DNA from: Anaerolineales bacterium
GTDB lineage: Bacteria; Chloroflexota; Anaerolineae; Anaerolineales; UBA4823
Assembly (NCBI GenBank): GCA_020354045.1
Contig: CP070639.1
Coordinates: 2,481,834-2,521,230, forward strand
Reading direction: 5' to 3'
Length of the DNA: 39,397 nt
Both the position numbers and the translations under genes were made by a program. Positions within the stretch are counted from its first letter, which is position 1, and each line of letters begins with the position of its first letter. Positions 14,702 through 26,075 of the stretch are shown piece after piece. Under the pieces are notes generated by a model. It was not told where the DNA came from. It ran no database searches and worked only from the letters and a program-made list of their open reading frames with translations.

Positions 14702-14971
14702 GTGAATTTCAGAAAATTACTCAGGCAGGATTCGCTACGCCACACTACATTAGCTCAGGGATTTGTCGTTCCTGAGTCATCTCGCTGTGTACAATGCGGC
14801 ATCTGTTCCTATAATTGCCCAATTAATATCGATGTACGCCGCCATGCTTGGTTAGGTCTCCCTGTAAAAGACAGCCATTGCCTGACTTGTGGCGAATGTG
14901 TTGCGCGCTGCCCGCGAGGCGTGCTGTCTTTCGGGCGGACCAACTTATTTGAAACACAGGAGCAAAACTGA
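14702..14971 (+). CDS. 2x[4Fe-4S] ferredoxin-like protein
   Basis: Small electron carrier or subunit of 89 residues. Two full cluster motifs are visible, CVQCGICSYNCP and CLTCGECVARCP, each CX2CX2CX3CP, separated by about 26 residues. The N-terminal 28 residues are basic and lack a signal peptide, so it is cytoplasmic or on the inner face of the membrane. The start is GTG, without a strong ribosome site. It is the first gene of a four-gene unit ending in a multiheme cytochrome, and is likely to pass electrons to or from the flavoprotein that follows 13 bases later. The motif spacing resembles the iron-sulfur subunit of heterodisulfide reductase-type complexes. Confidence 0.9.
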   Translation: MNFRKLLRQDSLRHTTLAQGFVVPESSRCVQCGICSYNCPINIDVRRHAWLGLPVKDSHCLTCGECVARCPRGVLSFGRTNLFETQEQN

Positions 14972-14984
14972 CAGGATTCGTGAC

Positions 14985-16313
14985 ATGCGCCGGTATTTGA
15001 TCATTGGCAGTGGCGTAGCCGGTATCTCAGCCATAGAGGCCATCCGCAAAATCGACCAGAGCGGAGAGATCATTCTGGTCAGCGATGATGTTCATGGTTA
15101 TTATTCTCGTCCAGGCTTGGCTTATTACCTGACTGGCGAACTGGCTGAGGAACATTTATTTCCATTTTCCAAGTCTGATTTCAAGAATCTCAATCTGCAC
15201 TTCCTGCATGCCCGAGTTGTTCAGATCAAGCCAACAGAACATCAAGTTCTGTTAAACACTGGCAAAGTGGTGCGTTATGATCGTTTGTTGATTGCTGTTG
15301 GCGCCTCAGCAGCCAAACTGAGGCTTCCCGGTAGCGAGCACGAGGGAGTGGTAAAGCTCGACAGCCTGGAAGATGCTCGTCTCATCCTGCGCTTGTCCCG
15401 CAGAGCTCGCACTGCAGTTGTCGTTGGGGGCGGGATCACAGCACTGGAAATTGTAGAAGGTTTGCTTGCCAGGGGGGTCAAAACACATTTCCTGCTACGT
15501 GGCCAGACCTACTGGGGCAATGTGCTGGACGGTATCGAGTCGCATATCGTACTTAACAAGTTGCAGGAAGAGGGGGTAAAAATCCACTTTAACACCGAGA
15601 TCGAGAGTATCCTGGCTAAACGAGGCAAAGTAGCTGGAATACAAACCAAAGATGGCAGGCGATTGGCATGTGATCTGGTCGCCTATGCCATTGGTATCAG
15701 GCCGCGCCTTGATCTGGCTGAGAGCTCAGATCTCCAAACCAATCGAGGGATCCTCGTTGATAATCACCTGCGCACAAATGTCCCAGACATTTTTGCTGCT
15801 GGGGATGTAGCCGAAGTCTATGACCCATTTACAGGACAATCTGTAATTGACAGTCTCTGGGGTCCTGCACGAGACCAGGGCAATGTCGCTGGCACAAACA
15901 TGGCTGGAATATCGGTGCCATATGCCAAACCTATCCCGTTTAATGTCACCCGTCTCGCTCACCTGACGACCACAATCATCGGCACGGTTGGCAAGGGTGC
16001 TGATAAAGATCTAGTTGGTATCGCGCGCGGTGATAGCGAAACCTGGCGGCAGCTACCAGATGCGATCGCGGCCCAATCCAATTTTGACATCAACCGCTTG
16101 AGGATACTGGTTGGGCAAAACACGCTGCTGGGTGCCATCGTAATGGGAGACCAGTCGCTTTCAAAAGCCTTGCATAAGCTCATCATACATCAGGAAGAGA
16201 TTAAATCCATTCGCAACCAGCTGCTGCAACCGGATGCTCCACTTGCCAACATCATTGCCGACCATTATATACATACAAGTGAGAAGTATGCACACTCGAA
16301 CCACCAACCGTGA
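14985..16313 (+). CDS. FAD-dependent NAD(P) oxidoreductase
   Basis: Two-dinucleotide-fold flavoprotein of 442 residues. FAD site IIGSGVAGISA at the N-terminus, second nucleotide site VVVGGGITALE in the middle, and the FAD ribityl motif IFAAGDVAE followed by LWGPARDQG. This matches the rubredoxin reductase/NirB-N-terminal class that moves electrons between NAD(P)H and an iron-sulfur or heme partner. An in-frame extension upstream to 14889 would overlap the ferredoxin, so I start at ATG 14985 with AGGA upstream. No CXXC redox pair of the thioredoxin reductase type is seen. It overlaps the next gene by 26 bases. Confidence 0.9.
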   Translation: MRRYLIIGSGVAGISAIEAIRKIDQSGEIILVSDDVHGYYSRPGLAYYLTGELAEEHLFPFSKSDFKNLNLHFLHARVVQIKPTEHQVLLNTGKVVRYDRLLIAVGASAAKLRLPGSEHEGVVKLDSLEDARLILRLSRRARTAVVVGGGITALEIVEGLLARGVKTHFLLRGQTYWGNVLDGIESHIVLNKLQEEGVKIHFNTEIESILAKRGKVAGIQTKDGRRLACDLVAYAIGIRPRLDLAESSDLQTNRGILVDNHLRTNVPDIFAAGDVAEVYDPFTGQSVIDSLWGPARDQGNVAGTNMAGISVPYAKPIPFNVTRLAHLTTTIIGTVGKGADKDLVGIARGDSETWRQLPDAIAAQSNFDINRLRILVGQNTLLGAIVMGDQSLSKALHKLIIHQEEIKSIRNQLLQPDAPLANIIADHYIHTSEKYAHSNHQP

Positions 16314-17115
16314 ACTCTGGTATGCGGTCATCGCAATACTCTGTATCTCAGCTGCCTACCTGTTTGTAGTCCTATGGTATGAAGGCATACCACGCGCCCG
16401 AGGGCTCTTCGGGCATTCAATTGGCATCCTGGGTTTTCTCTTAATGTTGATGACAGAGACCCTCTATTCTTTGCGCAAGCGCAGCCGTAGAGCCAGATGG
16501 GGTCGCATGTCTGGCTGGTTGGATTTCCATATCTTTACAGGGCTGGTTGGTCCATACATGGTGCTTCTGCATACTTCCTGGAAGTTCAACGGCCTGGCTG
16601 GTGTTGTGATGCTTTTGACTGTAGTCATTGTAGTCAGCGGTTTTATTGGTCGCTACATCTACACTGCATTGCCCCGCACAGCTGACGGAGCTGAGATTGA
16701 AGCCAGCGTCCTGGAAACCCAGATCAATTCAACCAATACTGAGCTGAACGCGTGGTTGTTGAACAGCTCAGAAGAGAGCGTGCGCTCGCTTGCCAGGCAG
16801 TTATCTTTCCAATCCCCGCAATCGCAGTCTCCATTGCGTCTGCTGTTTGGACGTACATTTGACGATTGGCGTTACCGTTTATTCTGGCGGCGGGAGCTTA
16901 AGAAACTTGGTCTTCAAATCGGTACACAGATCGAGCAATTGAACAAGCTATTACAAAGGCAGCGTGCTTTACAGCGACAGATGGCTTCCCTTGCCATGGC
17001 GCGGCGCATGTTAGCACTCTGGCATGCAGTGCATATCCCCATCGGGATGGCATTATTTGCTGCAGCTTTTGTACACATTATTGCGGCAATTTACTACGCC
17101 ACCCTGCTAAGATAA
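16288..17115 (+). CDS. Five-helix membrane protein, putative b-type cytochrome
   Basis: Not matched to a named family with certainty. Its 275 residues have hydrophobic helices at about 10-31, 40-60, 81-98, 103-126 and 247-272. A long charged helical stretch lies between helices 4 and 5. Histidines lie in or at the ends of helices: His43, His81, His95, His246, His249 and His263, a pattern suited to bis-His heme b ligation. ATG 16288 has GAGAAG upstream and overlaps the flavoprotein gene. An earlier in-frame start at 16234 would add residues with no ribosome site. Position between a flavoprotein and a multiheme cytochrome supports quinone- or heme-mediated transmembrane electron transfer. Confidence 0.78.
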   Translation: MHTRTTNRELWYAVIAILCISAAYLFVVLWYEGIPRARGLFGHSIGILGFLLMLMTETLYSLRKRSRRARWGRMSGWLDFHIFTGLVGPYMVLLHTSWKFNGLAGVVMLLTVVIVVSGFIGRYIYTALPRTADGAEIEASVLETQINSTNTELNAWLLNSSEESVRSLARQLSFQSPQSQSPLRLLFGRTFDDWRYRLFWRRELKKLGLQIGTQIEQLNKLLQRQRALQRQMASLAMARRMLALWHAVHIPIGMALFAAAFVHIIAAIYYATLLR

Positions 17116-17175
17116 TTCCCTTTTATACAGAGTGTTACTGGATCAGTCTAATGAACTGAAAAACGAAGAACACTT

Positions 17176-18825
17176 ATGAAACCATCACGAATTAGCTGCC
17201 TATCCGGAACTGGCATAATAACTGCCCTGCTCACTCTGATGATCATCACTGGCGTAGGACTCGCCCGCGGCGGCGTTTTATTCAGCCCGGGTGATTTAAA
17301 TGCAATTCCAAAAGATCAACCCCTGGGGGGTGTCGCGACCCATGCAGAAATTGGAGGACGCTGCGCAGCCTGCCACACTGCTTTTTGGGAACAAGAATTA
17401 ATGGCAGATCGCTGCATAGCATGCCACAACAATTTAATCCAGATGGGACAAAACTTCCATGTTGTCATGCTGGCTCAAAGTAAAAGCCTGCAATGCAAGC
17501 ACTGTCATACTGAGCATCGTGGCGCGTTGGCTTCACTAACTACCCTGCAAATGGAACGCTTCCCGCATAATGATGCTACCAGATTTTCTCTGCAAAGCCA
17601 CCAGCGAAACCAGGATGGTTCAACCTTCCAATGTGAAGATTGTCATGGTGCGGATTTCGCGATATTCCAGGTCAACTGGTGCCTTGAATGTCACCTGGAA
17701 ATTGAGGGTGCACAGATCGAATCCCATGCTGCTGTTTATAGCCTAGAATGCCTGGCCTGTCATGATGGTTTAGAGACACTGGGACGTGGTTTTGACCATA
17801 ACTTGACCTCTTTCGCGCTTACCGGAGAACATACCACCACGCTATGTTCGGATTGCCATGCCGGTGCAGGCTCTCTCGCTGATATGGAAGCTACCCGAGT
17901 CGAATGCGCCTTTTGCCACAACCACGATGACCCCCATGCAGGTGGTTATGGTCGCGAATGTGAACAATGTCATAATCCACAAGATTGGGAAGATATAGCT
18001 TTCAACCACCAACAGACTGCTTTCCCTTTGCTCGGAGCGCACGCGCAGGTCTCCTGCCAGGGCTGTCACCAATTTACCTCTCTGCAGAACACACCCACAA
18101 CTTGCTTCGCATGCCATGCTGAGAATGACCCGCATGAAGCCCAATTTGGTCAGGACTGTGCTACCTGTCATACCGTCGAGGGCTGGGACAAGGTAACTTT
18201 TGACCACTCACTGTCAGCGTTCCCGCTAACCGGTGCACACACCTCGGTTGCCTGTACTGACTGCCACCTTAACAATGTTTACCGTGGCACTGCGCAAGTG
18301 TGCCAGACCTGCCATGTGCAGGATGACATTCATGCTGGTCAATTTCTTCAGGACTGTGCTGCCTGCCATGTGACCGAGACGTGGGAACAGGTAAACTTTG
18401 ATCATTCATCGGCAGCTTTCCAGCTCACCGGGGCACATGTGGATGCAGTGTGCTCTCAATGCCATTTGAATGGGCAGTTTGTAGGGACCTCCCAACAATG
18501 CGTTGCCTGCCATGCCGACCCGATGTATCACCAGGGCTTATTCAGCCAGAATTGCGACAGCTGCCACAATACTTCTGCCTGGGTTCCAGCTACCTTCAAC
18601 CAGGCTCACAGGTTTCCGATTAACCACGGAAGGCGAGGCAGCAGCTGCAGCACCTGCCACCCAAGCACACTCAGGGACTACACGTGTTACGGCTGTCACG
18701 ATCACAACCGGGCAAATATTGAGAGCGAACACAGGGAAGAAGGTATCGGAAATTTCAATAATTGCGTACGCTGCCATCCTACAGGTCGGGAAGAAGAAGG
18801 CGGCGACGGTGGTGGCGATGATTAA
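17176..18825 (+). CDS. Multiheme c-type cytochrome with 21 CXXCH sites
   Basis: Exported electron-transfer protein. Its 549 residues contain 21 CXXCH heme-attachment motifs. The N-terminus is a signal peptide or anchor (hydrophobic residues about 13-30). The first six hemes (residues about 63-200) look like a cytochrome c3/c7-type cluster. From residue 206, five modules of 66-70 residues follow, each opening with FDH...F.LTGAH and carrying three CXXCH. The last is degenerate and ends in an acidic Gly-rich tail (EEEGGDGGGDD). Extra histidines (FDH, GAH, DPH) are likely distal ligands. No porin or outer-membrane partner lies nearby. It is the terminal gene of the redox unit, with no clear terminator before the convergent bactofilin gene. 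Confidence 0.95.
   Translation: MKPSRISCLSGTGIITALLTLMIITGVGLARGGVLFSPGDLNAIPKDQPLGGVATHAEIGGRCAACHTAFWEQELMADRCIACHNNLIQMGQNFHVVMLAQSKSLQCKHCHTEHRGALASLTTLQMERFPHNDATRFSLQSHQRNQDGSTFQCEDCHGADFAIFQVNWCLECHLEIEGAQIESHAAVYSLECLACHDGLETLGRGFDHNLTSFALTGEHTTTLCSDCHAGAGSLADMEATRVECAFCHNHDDPHAGGYGRECEQCHNPQDWEDIAFNHQQTAFPLLGAHAQVSCQGCHQFTSLQNTPTTCFACHAENDPHEAQFGQDCATCHTVEGWDKVTFDHSLSAFPLTGAHTSVACTDCHLNNVYRGTAQVCQTCHVQDDIHAGQFLQDCAACHVTETWEQVNFDHSSAAFQLTGAHVDAVCSQCHLNGQFVGTSQQCVACHADPMYHQGLFSQNCDSCHNTSAWVPATFNQAHRFPINHGRRGSSCSTCHPSTLRDYTCYGCHDHNRANIESEHREEGIGNFNNCVRCHPTGREEEGGDGGGDD
17791..18790 (+). repeat. Five tandem 66-70 codon three-heme modules
   Basis: Module starts are near 17791, 18001, 18199, 18397 and 18595, a period of 198 bases for modules 2-5 and 210 for the first. 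Each encodes FxH, a GAH-like motif and three CXXCH; the fifth is diverged. The protein period is exact, while the DNA has drifted, which indicates old internal duplication. Confidence 0.85.
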
Positions 18826-24693: not shown

Positions 24694-24758
24694 AGCGATC
24701 ACTGGTAAAATGGATGGCATTACGCTAGTTAAGACGCATACTAGTAGGAGTTCGTATA

Positions 24759-26075
24759 TTGAGACACCAAATTTTTCTTTTTTTATGTCTTTCGTTGATC
24801 CTCACAAGCTGTCAGGGCAACCTCTCAACCGCTTCCTCAGGCGGTGCCCAAATAGAAAGTCCGGGCGAGCAGGCAAATCAGACTTCGACAACTCCCTCTC
24901 TCACTACTGAGAAAACCGTAGCGGTCCCTCCAACCCAGGTCGAGGTCGCTATGACCTTGGAACCTGCAGGTTGTACGGTAGTAAGTCCAAGACCTACTCC
25001 AGGACCGACCGAACAATCCATTTTCCCGCCTGTGGGCGATCTGGATTGGGTCATTGGACCTCAGGAAGCCAGCATCACCCTGGTTGAATATAGCGATTTT
25101 CAGTGACCGGGTTGTGCTGACCTTGCGCCCGTGTTGGCGCAGCTAAAAAATAAATATCCACAGGATGTTCGCATTGTCTACCGACATTTCCCGCTGATCT
25201 CCATCCATGATAAAGCCGCTTTATCCGCTCAAGCTGCCGAGGCAGCCGGCGCTCAGGGTAAATTCTGGGAAATGCATGATCTGCTTTTTGAAAAGCAAGG
25301 CGAGTGGGCCTCTCTGGACGTGCCAGAATTTGAGGACTGGTTGCTAGAGCAAGGAAATGTGCTGGAGCTTGAAATTGAGCAATTCACCCGGGATCTAAGT
25401 AGCGCAGAGATCGCTGTCATGGTCCAGGCTGCTTATGACCATGCAGCGAAAATTGGCTTACCTGGCACCCCATTTTTACTTCTGAATGGACGCATCTGGC
25501 CCAATAATTTGCCGATGAGCCCGGGTAACCTCGCTGCCATCATCGAATTGGACCTACTGGAGCGCAGGCAGTTTACCCAGTGTCCTCCCTTAGCCATTGA
25601 TCTCTCCAAACAGTACCTGGCAACCCTAAAGACGGAAAAGGGGGATATTGTTCTGGAGTTGTTTGCTGATCAGGCGCCTTTAGCTGTCAACAACTTTATT
25701 TTCCTGGCTCAGTCTGGCTGGTTTGATGGTGTCTCATTCCACCGGGTGATCCCAGGGGTCGTCGCTCAGGCAGGCGATCCCAGTGGAACAGGCTTCGGTG
25801 GACCAGGGTATGCTTTTATCACCGAGATATCGTCTGAATTAAAGTTTGATAAAGCCGGAGTGCTCGGCATGGCAAATTCCGGACCCGATTCAAACGGTTC
25901 CCAGTTTTTCATCGCACTGGCACCAAACCCGCAGTGGGATGGCAGTTATACCATCTTTGGTCAGGTTATTGTTGGAATGGACGTCGTTGAGAGCCTTTCC
26001 GCACGCGATCCTTCTAAGACATTGGATCTGCCACCCGGTGATCTGATTCTGAGCATTGTGGTTGAGGAAAAATAA
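24759..26075 (+). CDS. Candidate selenoprotein: DsbA-like thioredoxin fused to cyclophilin, lipoprotein (in-frame TGA at 25104-25106)
   Basis: One continuous frame of 438 residues, interrupted only by TGA at codon 116. Seen: the start is TTG 24759 with TAGGAG upstream; a lipoprotein signal ends in LTSC (Cys18); a Thr/Pro/Ser-rich linker follows; then VEYSDFQ-(TGA)-PGCADLAP, VYRHFPL and the cis-proline loop GLPGTPF (Pro about 238). These are the landmarks of a DsbA/thioredoxin_4 domain in which TGA replaces the first Cys of CXXC. Residues about 286-438 form a cyclophilin (FHRVIPG, AQAGDP, GSQFFI). Inference: the product is an exported thiol/selenol oxidoreductase joined to a prolyl isomerase, a folding helper. 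A SECIS-like hairpin follows the TGA. The alternatives are a nonsense mutation or a sequencing error. Restart at GTG 25131 would lose the active site. Confidence 0.8.
25123..25142 (+). promoter_or_regulatory. Candidate bacterial SECIS element
   Basis: Six perfect pairs (25124-25129 with 25136-25141, TGCGCC/GGCGCA) plus a U-G closing pair, and a six-base loop CGTGTT with G as its second base. The loop begins 23 bases after the TGA. A G among the first two loop bases, a short stem and this spacing match what is expected of bacterial SECIS elements, which lie in the coding region just after UGA. Confidence 0.65.

What the first reader, a model, noticed from the sequence alone, without database searches (positions are those of the whole stretch)
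24759..26075. Candidate new selenoprotein: in-frame TGA replaces the first Cys of a DsbA-like CXXC
The frame is open for 115 codons, then TGA, then open for 322 more codons to TAA, in the same frame. The TGA falls exactly where DsbA/thioredoxin_4 proteins have the nucleophilic Cys (EYSDFQ-C-P-x-C), giving Sec-Pro-Gly-Cys. The resolving Cys is intact, the downstream fold is intact, and the base after TGA is C, a favourable context. Chance placement of a nonsense mutation at that one codon is unlikely, though TGC/TGT to TGA is a single change. Other genes here use TGA as stop, so a general code change is excluded.
Basis: partly seen in the sequence, partly recalled or inferred. Interest (0 to 1): 0.93.

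Follow-up and report, generated by a model that had tools for sequence, protein, structure and literature searches.

The report
Selenocysteine-carrying DsbA–cyclophilin fusion lipoprotein
A bacterial gene joining a disulfide-exchange domain to a proline-isomerase domain has a stop-type codon (UGA) exactly where the key active-site cysteine belongs, and 75 related genomes share that codon at the same place; it is very likely read as the rare amino acid selenocysteine, which would make this protein, partly listed in databases in shortened form, an overlooked selenium-dependent protein-folding helper.

Summary
The frame 24759-26075 is open except for TGA at 25104-25106, first position of a U-P-G-C motif. 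The same TGA sits at the same aligned site in 77 loci of 76 genomes; other relatives have Cys or another residue. The own genome has tRNA-Sec, selA, selB and the 5' part of selD. A SECIS-type hairpin follows the TGA, with compensatory changes in 22 TGA orthologues and no such signal in 30 Cys orthologues. The redox domain is of a known kind: DsbA-like selenoproteins, and the Rcas_1661 (seleno)lipoprotein family, whose cut-off it misses (86.4 against 190 bits). The cyclophilin fusion and the SECIS shift were not found in the papers searched. Seventeen of 120 listed database relatives start just after the UGA. Selenium incorporation itself is unproven.

The parts
24746..24750 (+). AGGAG, Shine-Dalgarno-like, 8 nt before the TTG start
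   Evidence: sequence; motif recognised from general knowledge
24759..26075 (+). predicted selenoprotein gene, 438 codons with UGA read, TAA stop
24759..24812 (+). signal peptide and lipobox LTSC; Cys18 predicted lipid-anchored
   Evidence: C18 at least 90% conserved in the 47 aligned proteins chosen from 70 loci; predicted helix 3-18; no signal-peptide program was run
25047..25508 (+). Thioredoxin_4 / DsbA-like domain, residues 97-250
   Evidence: PF13462 75.2 bits, PF01323 51.4 bits; model pLDDT 94-98 there
25104..25106 (+). in-frame TGA, predicted selenocysteine (residue 116) of U-P-G-C
25113..25115 (+). resolving Cys119
   Evidence: invariant in the 47 rows of A3; some of the 23 loci left out of A3 lack it
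25123..25142 (+). SECIS-type hairpin: 7 bp, loop CGUGUU at 25130-25135, 23 nt between UGA and loop
25131..25133 (+). GTG inside the SECIS loop, start codon of the mechanical 314-aa ORF; database relatives of 314 aa start at the equivalent residue
25470..25472 (+). Pro238, predicted cis-Pro of the thioredoxin fold (T-P before a strand)
   Evidence: invariant in A3; strand 239-242 in the model; role inferred
25623..26009 (+). cyclophilin-type peptidyl-prolyl isomerase domain, residues 289-417
   Evidence: PF00160 144 bits; PDB cyclophilins by sequence and fold

Best explanation
The in-frame UGA at 25104-25106 is predicted to be read as selenocysteine by SelB and tRNA-Sec, directed by the hairpin at 25123-25142, giving a likely lipid-anchored protein that would combine a Sec-Pro-Gly-Cys disulfide-exchange site with a proline isomerase. 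Shown here: the UGA and its conservation at one column, the Cys and other states in orthologues, the hairpin with compensatory changes, the machinery genes, and the two domains by profile match. Inferred: that Sec is inserted, that the protein sits outside the membrane, and that it helps exported proteins fold by making, breaking or shuffling disulfides while isomerising prolines. The likely redox partner is a DsbD/CcdA-type membrane protein, because one was found and VKOR was not, which leans towards a reductase or isomerase role rather than an oxidase; this last step is weak.
For: TGA at the same site in 22 of 70 loci (69 genomes) in the set of relatives; 30 have a Cys codon and 18 another residue. 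TGA at that site in 55 of 55 further loci flagged with one TGA in the phylum and class searches. tRNA-Sec 72 bits and TCA anticodon, selB 343 bits, selA 547 bits, selD 5' part carrying its own TGA, then a run of N. All 22 TGA genomes have tRNA-Sec of at least 60 bits or selB over its cut-off; 12 of 47 non-TGA genomes with the fusion have neither (Fisher p=0.007, not corrected for kinship). Hairpin in 22 TGA sequences: 96.1% of cells paired, 10 double-change cells, 0 of 500 shuffles as high; 30 Cys sequences: 48.1%, 188 of 500. bSECIS-model hairpin at -7.5 kcal/mol or better in 61 of 77 TGA loci (21 of 22 and 40 of 55) against 2 of 30 Cys loci; codon-shuffled background 4.5-7.1%. VKOR 0 matches, DsbD_TM 33.7 bits over its cut-off of 27.1.
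Against: No proteomic or selenium evidence. The lowest-energy fold of this gene's own 60-mer (-15.9 kcal/mol, z -1.11, 31 of 200 shuffles as good) pairs the 3' arm with an upstream stretch instead of forming the conserved hairpin (-10.1). L018 (TGA) has no hairpin meeting the published rules, and 15 of 55 class loci miss the energy limit. Eight of the 22 TGA genomes show only one of tRNA-Sec (60 bits or more, my threshold) and selB; their completeness is 63-97%, and one of them (G035) is a single contig. 35 of 47 non-TGA genomes have machinery too, so having it does not predict the TGA. selD is incomplete in the sequence held. The direction of the redox reaction rests on two family searches in one genome of 84% estimated completeness.
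Confidence: 0.92

Rival explanations
1. The UGA is a real stop and two products are made: a 115-residue lipoprotein stub and a 314-residue protein started at GTG 25131, as gene callers have it.
For: 15 of the 120 listed database proteins are exactly 314 aa long and start at the equivalent residue (one, 99% identical, is probably the window's own), two more are 308 aa; the ORF listing gives the same pieces.
Against: The cut would fall inside the thioredoxin fold and remove the nucleophile. Thirty orthologues code a Cys at that site in one uninterrupted frame. The GTG is part of a covarying hairpin loop.
Confidence: 0.03
2. Nonsense mutation, pseudogene or sequencing error.
For: TGC or TGT to TGA is a single base change.
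Against: 77 loci in 76 genomes carry it at one column; their matches run on to query residue 426-438 with no other stop inside, and the hairpins covary.
Confidence: 0.01
3. The UGA is read through without selenium, with Cys or another amino acid inserted.
For: Cys orthologues suggest that Cys works at this place. Some SECIS-bearing genes can take Cys under selenium shortage (recalled, from no call).
Against: The tRNA-Sec, selA and selB genes are present and the hairpin goes with TGA, not with Cys. TGA ends 13 of 32 picked ORFs in the window.
Confidence: 0.04
4. It is a selenoprotein, but the redox domain works as an oxidase (DsbA-like) or a peroxide-scavenging enzyme rather than a reductase or isomerase.
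For: Pfam names the fold DsbA-like. The fused cyclophilin fits oxidative folding. The genome's oxidase partner could be a family not searched, for instance DsbB.
Against: No VKOR match in the genome and a DsbD_TM match present; this is weak.
Confidence: 0.4

Closest known systems
NCBIfam NF041057, Rcas_1661 family thioredoxin-like (seleno)lipoprotein (listed as 'DsbG-like protein' in the review PMC13188914)
   Same: Named a thioredoxin-like (seleno)lipoprotein; the model aligns to residues 8-246 of this protein.
   Different: 86.4 bits against a cut-off of 190; the model has 247 positions and so no room for a cyclophilin domain. The own genome has a closer relative of that family elsewhere, at C1:2439779-2440411, with its own TGA (164 bits, also under the cut-off).
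DsbA-like selenoproteins, PF01323 UxxC (GOS 'DsbA 1/2'; 'DsbA-like protein form 1')
   Same: Same domain family and same Sec position in the motif.
   Different: No cyclophilin fusion and no Chloroflexota member is mentioned in the passages seen.
Cyclophilin-type PPIases, PF00160
   Same: C-terminal domain over the cut-off, with Arg329 and Phe383 conserved in A3 (their roles in cyclophilins are recalled).
   Different: Fused behind a Sec or Cys thioredoxin-like domain in a predicted lipoprotein.

Membership tests
Bacterial selenoprotein | In-frame UGA aligned with Cys of homologues | tested here: met
   22 TGA, 30 Cys, 18 other of 70 loci; 55 of 55 flagged loci
Bacterial selenoprotein | SECIS hairpin after the UGA (loop 3-9 nt, stem 4-16 bp, G in the first two loop bases, spacing 16-37 nt, -7.5 kcal/mol or better) | tested here: met
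   Own gene: 7 bp, CGUGUU, spacing 23, -10.1 kcal/mol, though it is not the minimum-energy fold of the 60-mer; rules read in PMC13188914
Bacterial selenoprotein | selA, selB and selC in the genome | tested here: met
Bacterial selenoprotein | Complete selD in the genome | tested here: inconclusive
   First 107 of 311 model positions, with an in-frame TGA, then a run of 100 N (assembly gap or masked stretch); the only other match is under the cut-off
Bacterial selenoprotein | Selenium found in the protein | not testable with these tools
   needs 75Se labelling or mass spectrometry
NF041057 Rcas_1661 (seleno)lipoprotein | Score at or above 190 bits | tested here: not met
   86.4 bits
NF041057 Rcas_1661 (seleno)lipoprotein | Thioredoxin-like lipoprotein with a Cys or Sec site | tested here: met
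   lipobox by eye only
PF13462 / PF01323 thioredoxin-like, DsbA-like | Score above the gathering cut-off | tested here: met
   75.2 against 23.2 and 51.4 against 25.6 bits
PF00160 cyclophilin | Score above the gathering cut-off | tested here: met
   144 against 21.7 bits

The most novel reading that the evidence does not exclude
An overlooked selenium-dependent protein foldase, joining disulfide exchange to proline isomerisation, runs through the class Anaerolineae. In its gene the SECIS hairpin has jumped between two registers (23 and 37 nt after the UGA) at least four times while the UGA stayed put, and Sec, Cys and other residues have replaced one another many times. That makes it a natural series of experiments on how SECIS elements move, arise and die.
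Probability: 0.7. Interest if true: 0.72.

Novelty: new variant of a known kind. Interest (0 to 1): 0.64.

Why it matters
If true, a protein family spread across a class of environmental bacteria is partly mis-annotated: the shortened entries start at a GTG that is really the loop of the recoding signal. It would be a selenoprotein that carries a proline isomerase, a pairing not seen in the papers searched, and would tie selenium to folding of exported proteins in Chloroflexota. Because one orthologous gene carries the SECIS at different places, it allows direct tests of how far from the UGA SelB can work, and of how Sec is gained or lost.

Tried and rejected
Considered and rejected: nonsense mutation or pseudogene, sequencing error, reassigned UGA code, two separate genes (see rivals). 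Membership in NF041057 was rejected on score. A second, proximal hairpin before the +37 hairpin, suggested by eye in several class sequences, was tested and is not established: 72.9% of cells paired against 69.7% in shuffles (34 of 500 as high), covariation 0.254 against 0.200 (16 of 500), double changes no more than shuffled (299 of 500), and a partner slid by -2 gives more double-change cells, 15 against 7. Searches for an oxidase partner: VKOR gave nothing; DsbB was not searched. Of the 50 Foldseek rows shown nearly all are cyclophilins or spliceosome chains that hold one, and one (8j07_S) is an axonemal entry, so the search says nothing on the thioredoxin half. Rows left out: three of the 73 listed two-domain rows (G075, G086, G096; no stop inside) were not fetched; the 64 rows without a TGA were not checked for their site residue, apart from two Cys loci, L172 and L173, which are not in the tree, and those already seen among the relatives; 23 of 70 loci were left out of the protein alignment A3, most of them with Ala, Ser or other residues at the site. 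The tRNA-Sec threshold of 60 bits is mine (family cut-off 47); I copied the genome lists by hand. G044 has a 53-bit match that I counted as none. The register classes were defined after seeing the sequences, and the tree is a quick one (SH-aLRT support only).

Full report
What is there. The frame 24759-26075 reads 115 codons, TGA, 322 codons, TAA. A Shine-Dalgarno-like AGGAG lies 8 nt before the TTG start. Read through, the protein has 438 residues: a predicted signal peptide with lipobox LTSC, a linker of low model confidence, a Thioredoxin_4/DsbA-like domain (97-250) and a cyclophilin domain (289-417). AlphaFold2 with a 47-row alignment gives mean pLDDT 89.1, with ten-residue blocks at 91-99 from residue 91 on. 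Residue 116, the UGA, lies just before the helix 117-132, as the first CXXC position does in thioredoxin folds (recalled). In the 47 rows, chosen from 70 loci, Cys119 and Pro238 are invariant, and Cys18 and Arg329 at least 90% conserved.

Conservation of the TGA. In 101 genomes searched as relatives, 73 listed rows cover both domains. I examined 70 of these loci, in 69 genomes: 22 have TGA at the aligned site, 30 a Cys codon and 18 another residue (Ala, Ser, Thr, Asp, Gly). A search of 400 genomes of the phylum found 38 with a match at 1e-70, 4 of them with one TGA inside. A search of 396 genomes of the class found 118 with a match at 1e-80; 56 of the 120 rows, in 55 genomes, have one TGA inside. 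All 55 rows other than the own gene were fetched, and all 55 have the TGA at the aligned site. Together: 77 loci in 76 genomes, the own one included. Named records of the closer matches (L086-L131) are Anaerolineales, Thermoflexales and other Chloroflexota; further down come Patescibacteria and others. Eight of the 80 loci fetched there have TGA at the site, all eight with Chloroflexota titles, some of them the same contigs as above. The window's organism is therefore inferred to belong in or near Anaerolineales, class Anaerolineae; no call names it.

Machinery. The own genome (3.59 Mb, one contig, estimated 84% complete) has tRNA-Sec with anticodon TCA, selB and selA. selD matches model positions 1-107 with its own in-frame TGA (at what I recall as the usual place), then runs into 100 N, an assembly gap or a masked stretch. 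Over the 101 relatives, each of the 22 TGA genomes has tRNA-Sec of at least 60 bits, or selB over its cut-off, or both (14 both, 4 each alone). Of 47 non-TGA genomes with the fusion, 35 have some machinery and 12 have none (Fisher p=0.007, kinship not corrected). In 6 of the 70 loci the tRNA-Sec gene lies beside this gene: L049, L050, L067, L081, L083, L085; two of these six have TGA, three Cys and one Ser.

SECIS. In the 22 TGA sequences of the set of relatives, RNAalifold finds a 7-bp hairpin whose stem begins 16 nt, and whose loop CGUGNU begins 23 nt, after the UGA. 96.1% of pair cells are paired, 10 cells have changes on both sides, covariation 0.270 against 0.125 in shuffles (0 of 500 as high); versions slid by 1-3 columns give 30.5-57.8% paired. 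The same positions in the 30 Cys orthologues show no such signal: 48.1%, 188 of 500. One Cys orthologue, G055, keeps the full stem and a CGUG loop, which looks like a fossil of a recent Sec-to-Cys change. By the published rules (PMC13188914, section read) 21 of 22 and 40 of 55 TGA loci have a fitting hairpin, 2 of 30 Cys loci do, and codon-shuffled sequences do so at 4.5-7.1%. Against: the minimum-energy fold of the own 60-mer, -15.9 kcal/mol, is a different pairing (z -1.11), against -10.1 for the conserved hairpin, and L018 fails the rules.

SECIS position shifts. In the wider class 38 of the 55 TGA loci have a hairpin of at least 5 bp whose loop, UGGUA or UGUUA in most, begins 37 nt after the UGA, and 11 have the +23 hairpin instead. 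In the 38 sequences (35 distinct), chosen by that stem, 95.0% of cells are paired, 36 cells have double changes and covariation is 0.425 against 0.165 (0 of 500); the choice by stem favours pairing but does not by itself make compensatory changes. On a quick protein tree of 125 rows, with the UGA residue written X, 34 TGA rows are of the +23 type, 38 of the +37 type and 5 of neither; on this tree the two registers need at least 4 changes, and Sec/Cys/other at least 17.

Annotation. A search of 5.8 billion proteins gave 6116 relatives at 1e-60 among the 7998 candidates scored; of the 120 listed, 15 are exactly 314 aa and 2 are 308 aa, starting just after the UGA. The 314-aa start is the residue of the GTG in the SECIS loop. 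The one 99% identical, without a source, is probably the window's own. Names shown in that list are peptidylprolyl isomerase and cyclophilin/protein-disulfide isomerase; none shown is a selenoprotein name.

What is known. DsbA-like UxxC selenoproteins are in the GOS paper (PMC2398784, passages) and in the 2026 review (PMC13188914, sections 5 and 6 and passages of others). The review's main text holds none of cyclophilin, peptidyl, Chloroflex, PF13462 or PF00160. The main text of the deep-Sep paper (PMC12013277, passages) holds none of Chloroflex, DsbA or isomerase. PMC1794560 (passages) counts 3 Chloroflexi selenoproteins; the passages do not name them. The full-text searches (listings only, apart from the papers named above) showed no selenoprotein-cyclophilin fusion and no SECIS shift between orthologues; most subscription journals and all bioRxiv preprints are outside that library. 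The closest curated family is NF041057, not met on score.

Function. Inferred: a membrane-anchored foldase on the outside of the cell. The genome shows a DsbD_TM protein (33.7 bits) and no VKOR match, which leans towards a reductive or isomerising role; this is the weakest step.

Noticed in passing
own genome C1:2439779-2440411 (L226): A second predicted selenoprotein, an Rcas_1661-like thioredoxin-like protein with TGA at DFQ-U-P-F-C; it has neither of the two hairpin registers, and other positions were not scanned.
   Followed up: partly
own genome C1:879056-879379 (L167): selD carries its own in-frame TGA and is cut by a run of 100 N.
   Followed up: partly
L049, L050, L067, L081, L083, L085: The tRNA-Sec gene stands beside this gene, on the opposite strand, in 6 of 70 loci, also where the site is Cys or Ser.
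   Followed up: partly
L040, L042, L052-L054, L056-L058, L066, L068, L069, L075, L076: 13 of the 15 orthologues with Ala, Ser or Thr at the Sec site have a Cys four residues earlier (YCDFQ, YCDYQ or YCDFH), as if the redox pair had shifted; L073 and L083 do not.
   Followed up: no
L035 (G055): Cys orthologue that keeps the full SECIS stem and loop, a likely fossil of a former Sec codon.
   Followed up: partly
window 14702-18825: Multihaem cytochrome c (17176-18825, many CxxCH) near a flavin oxidoreductase (14889-16313) and a ferredoxin-like gene (14702-14971).
   Followed up: no
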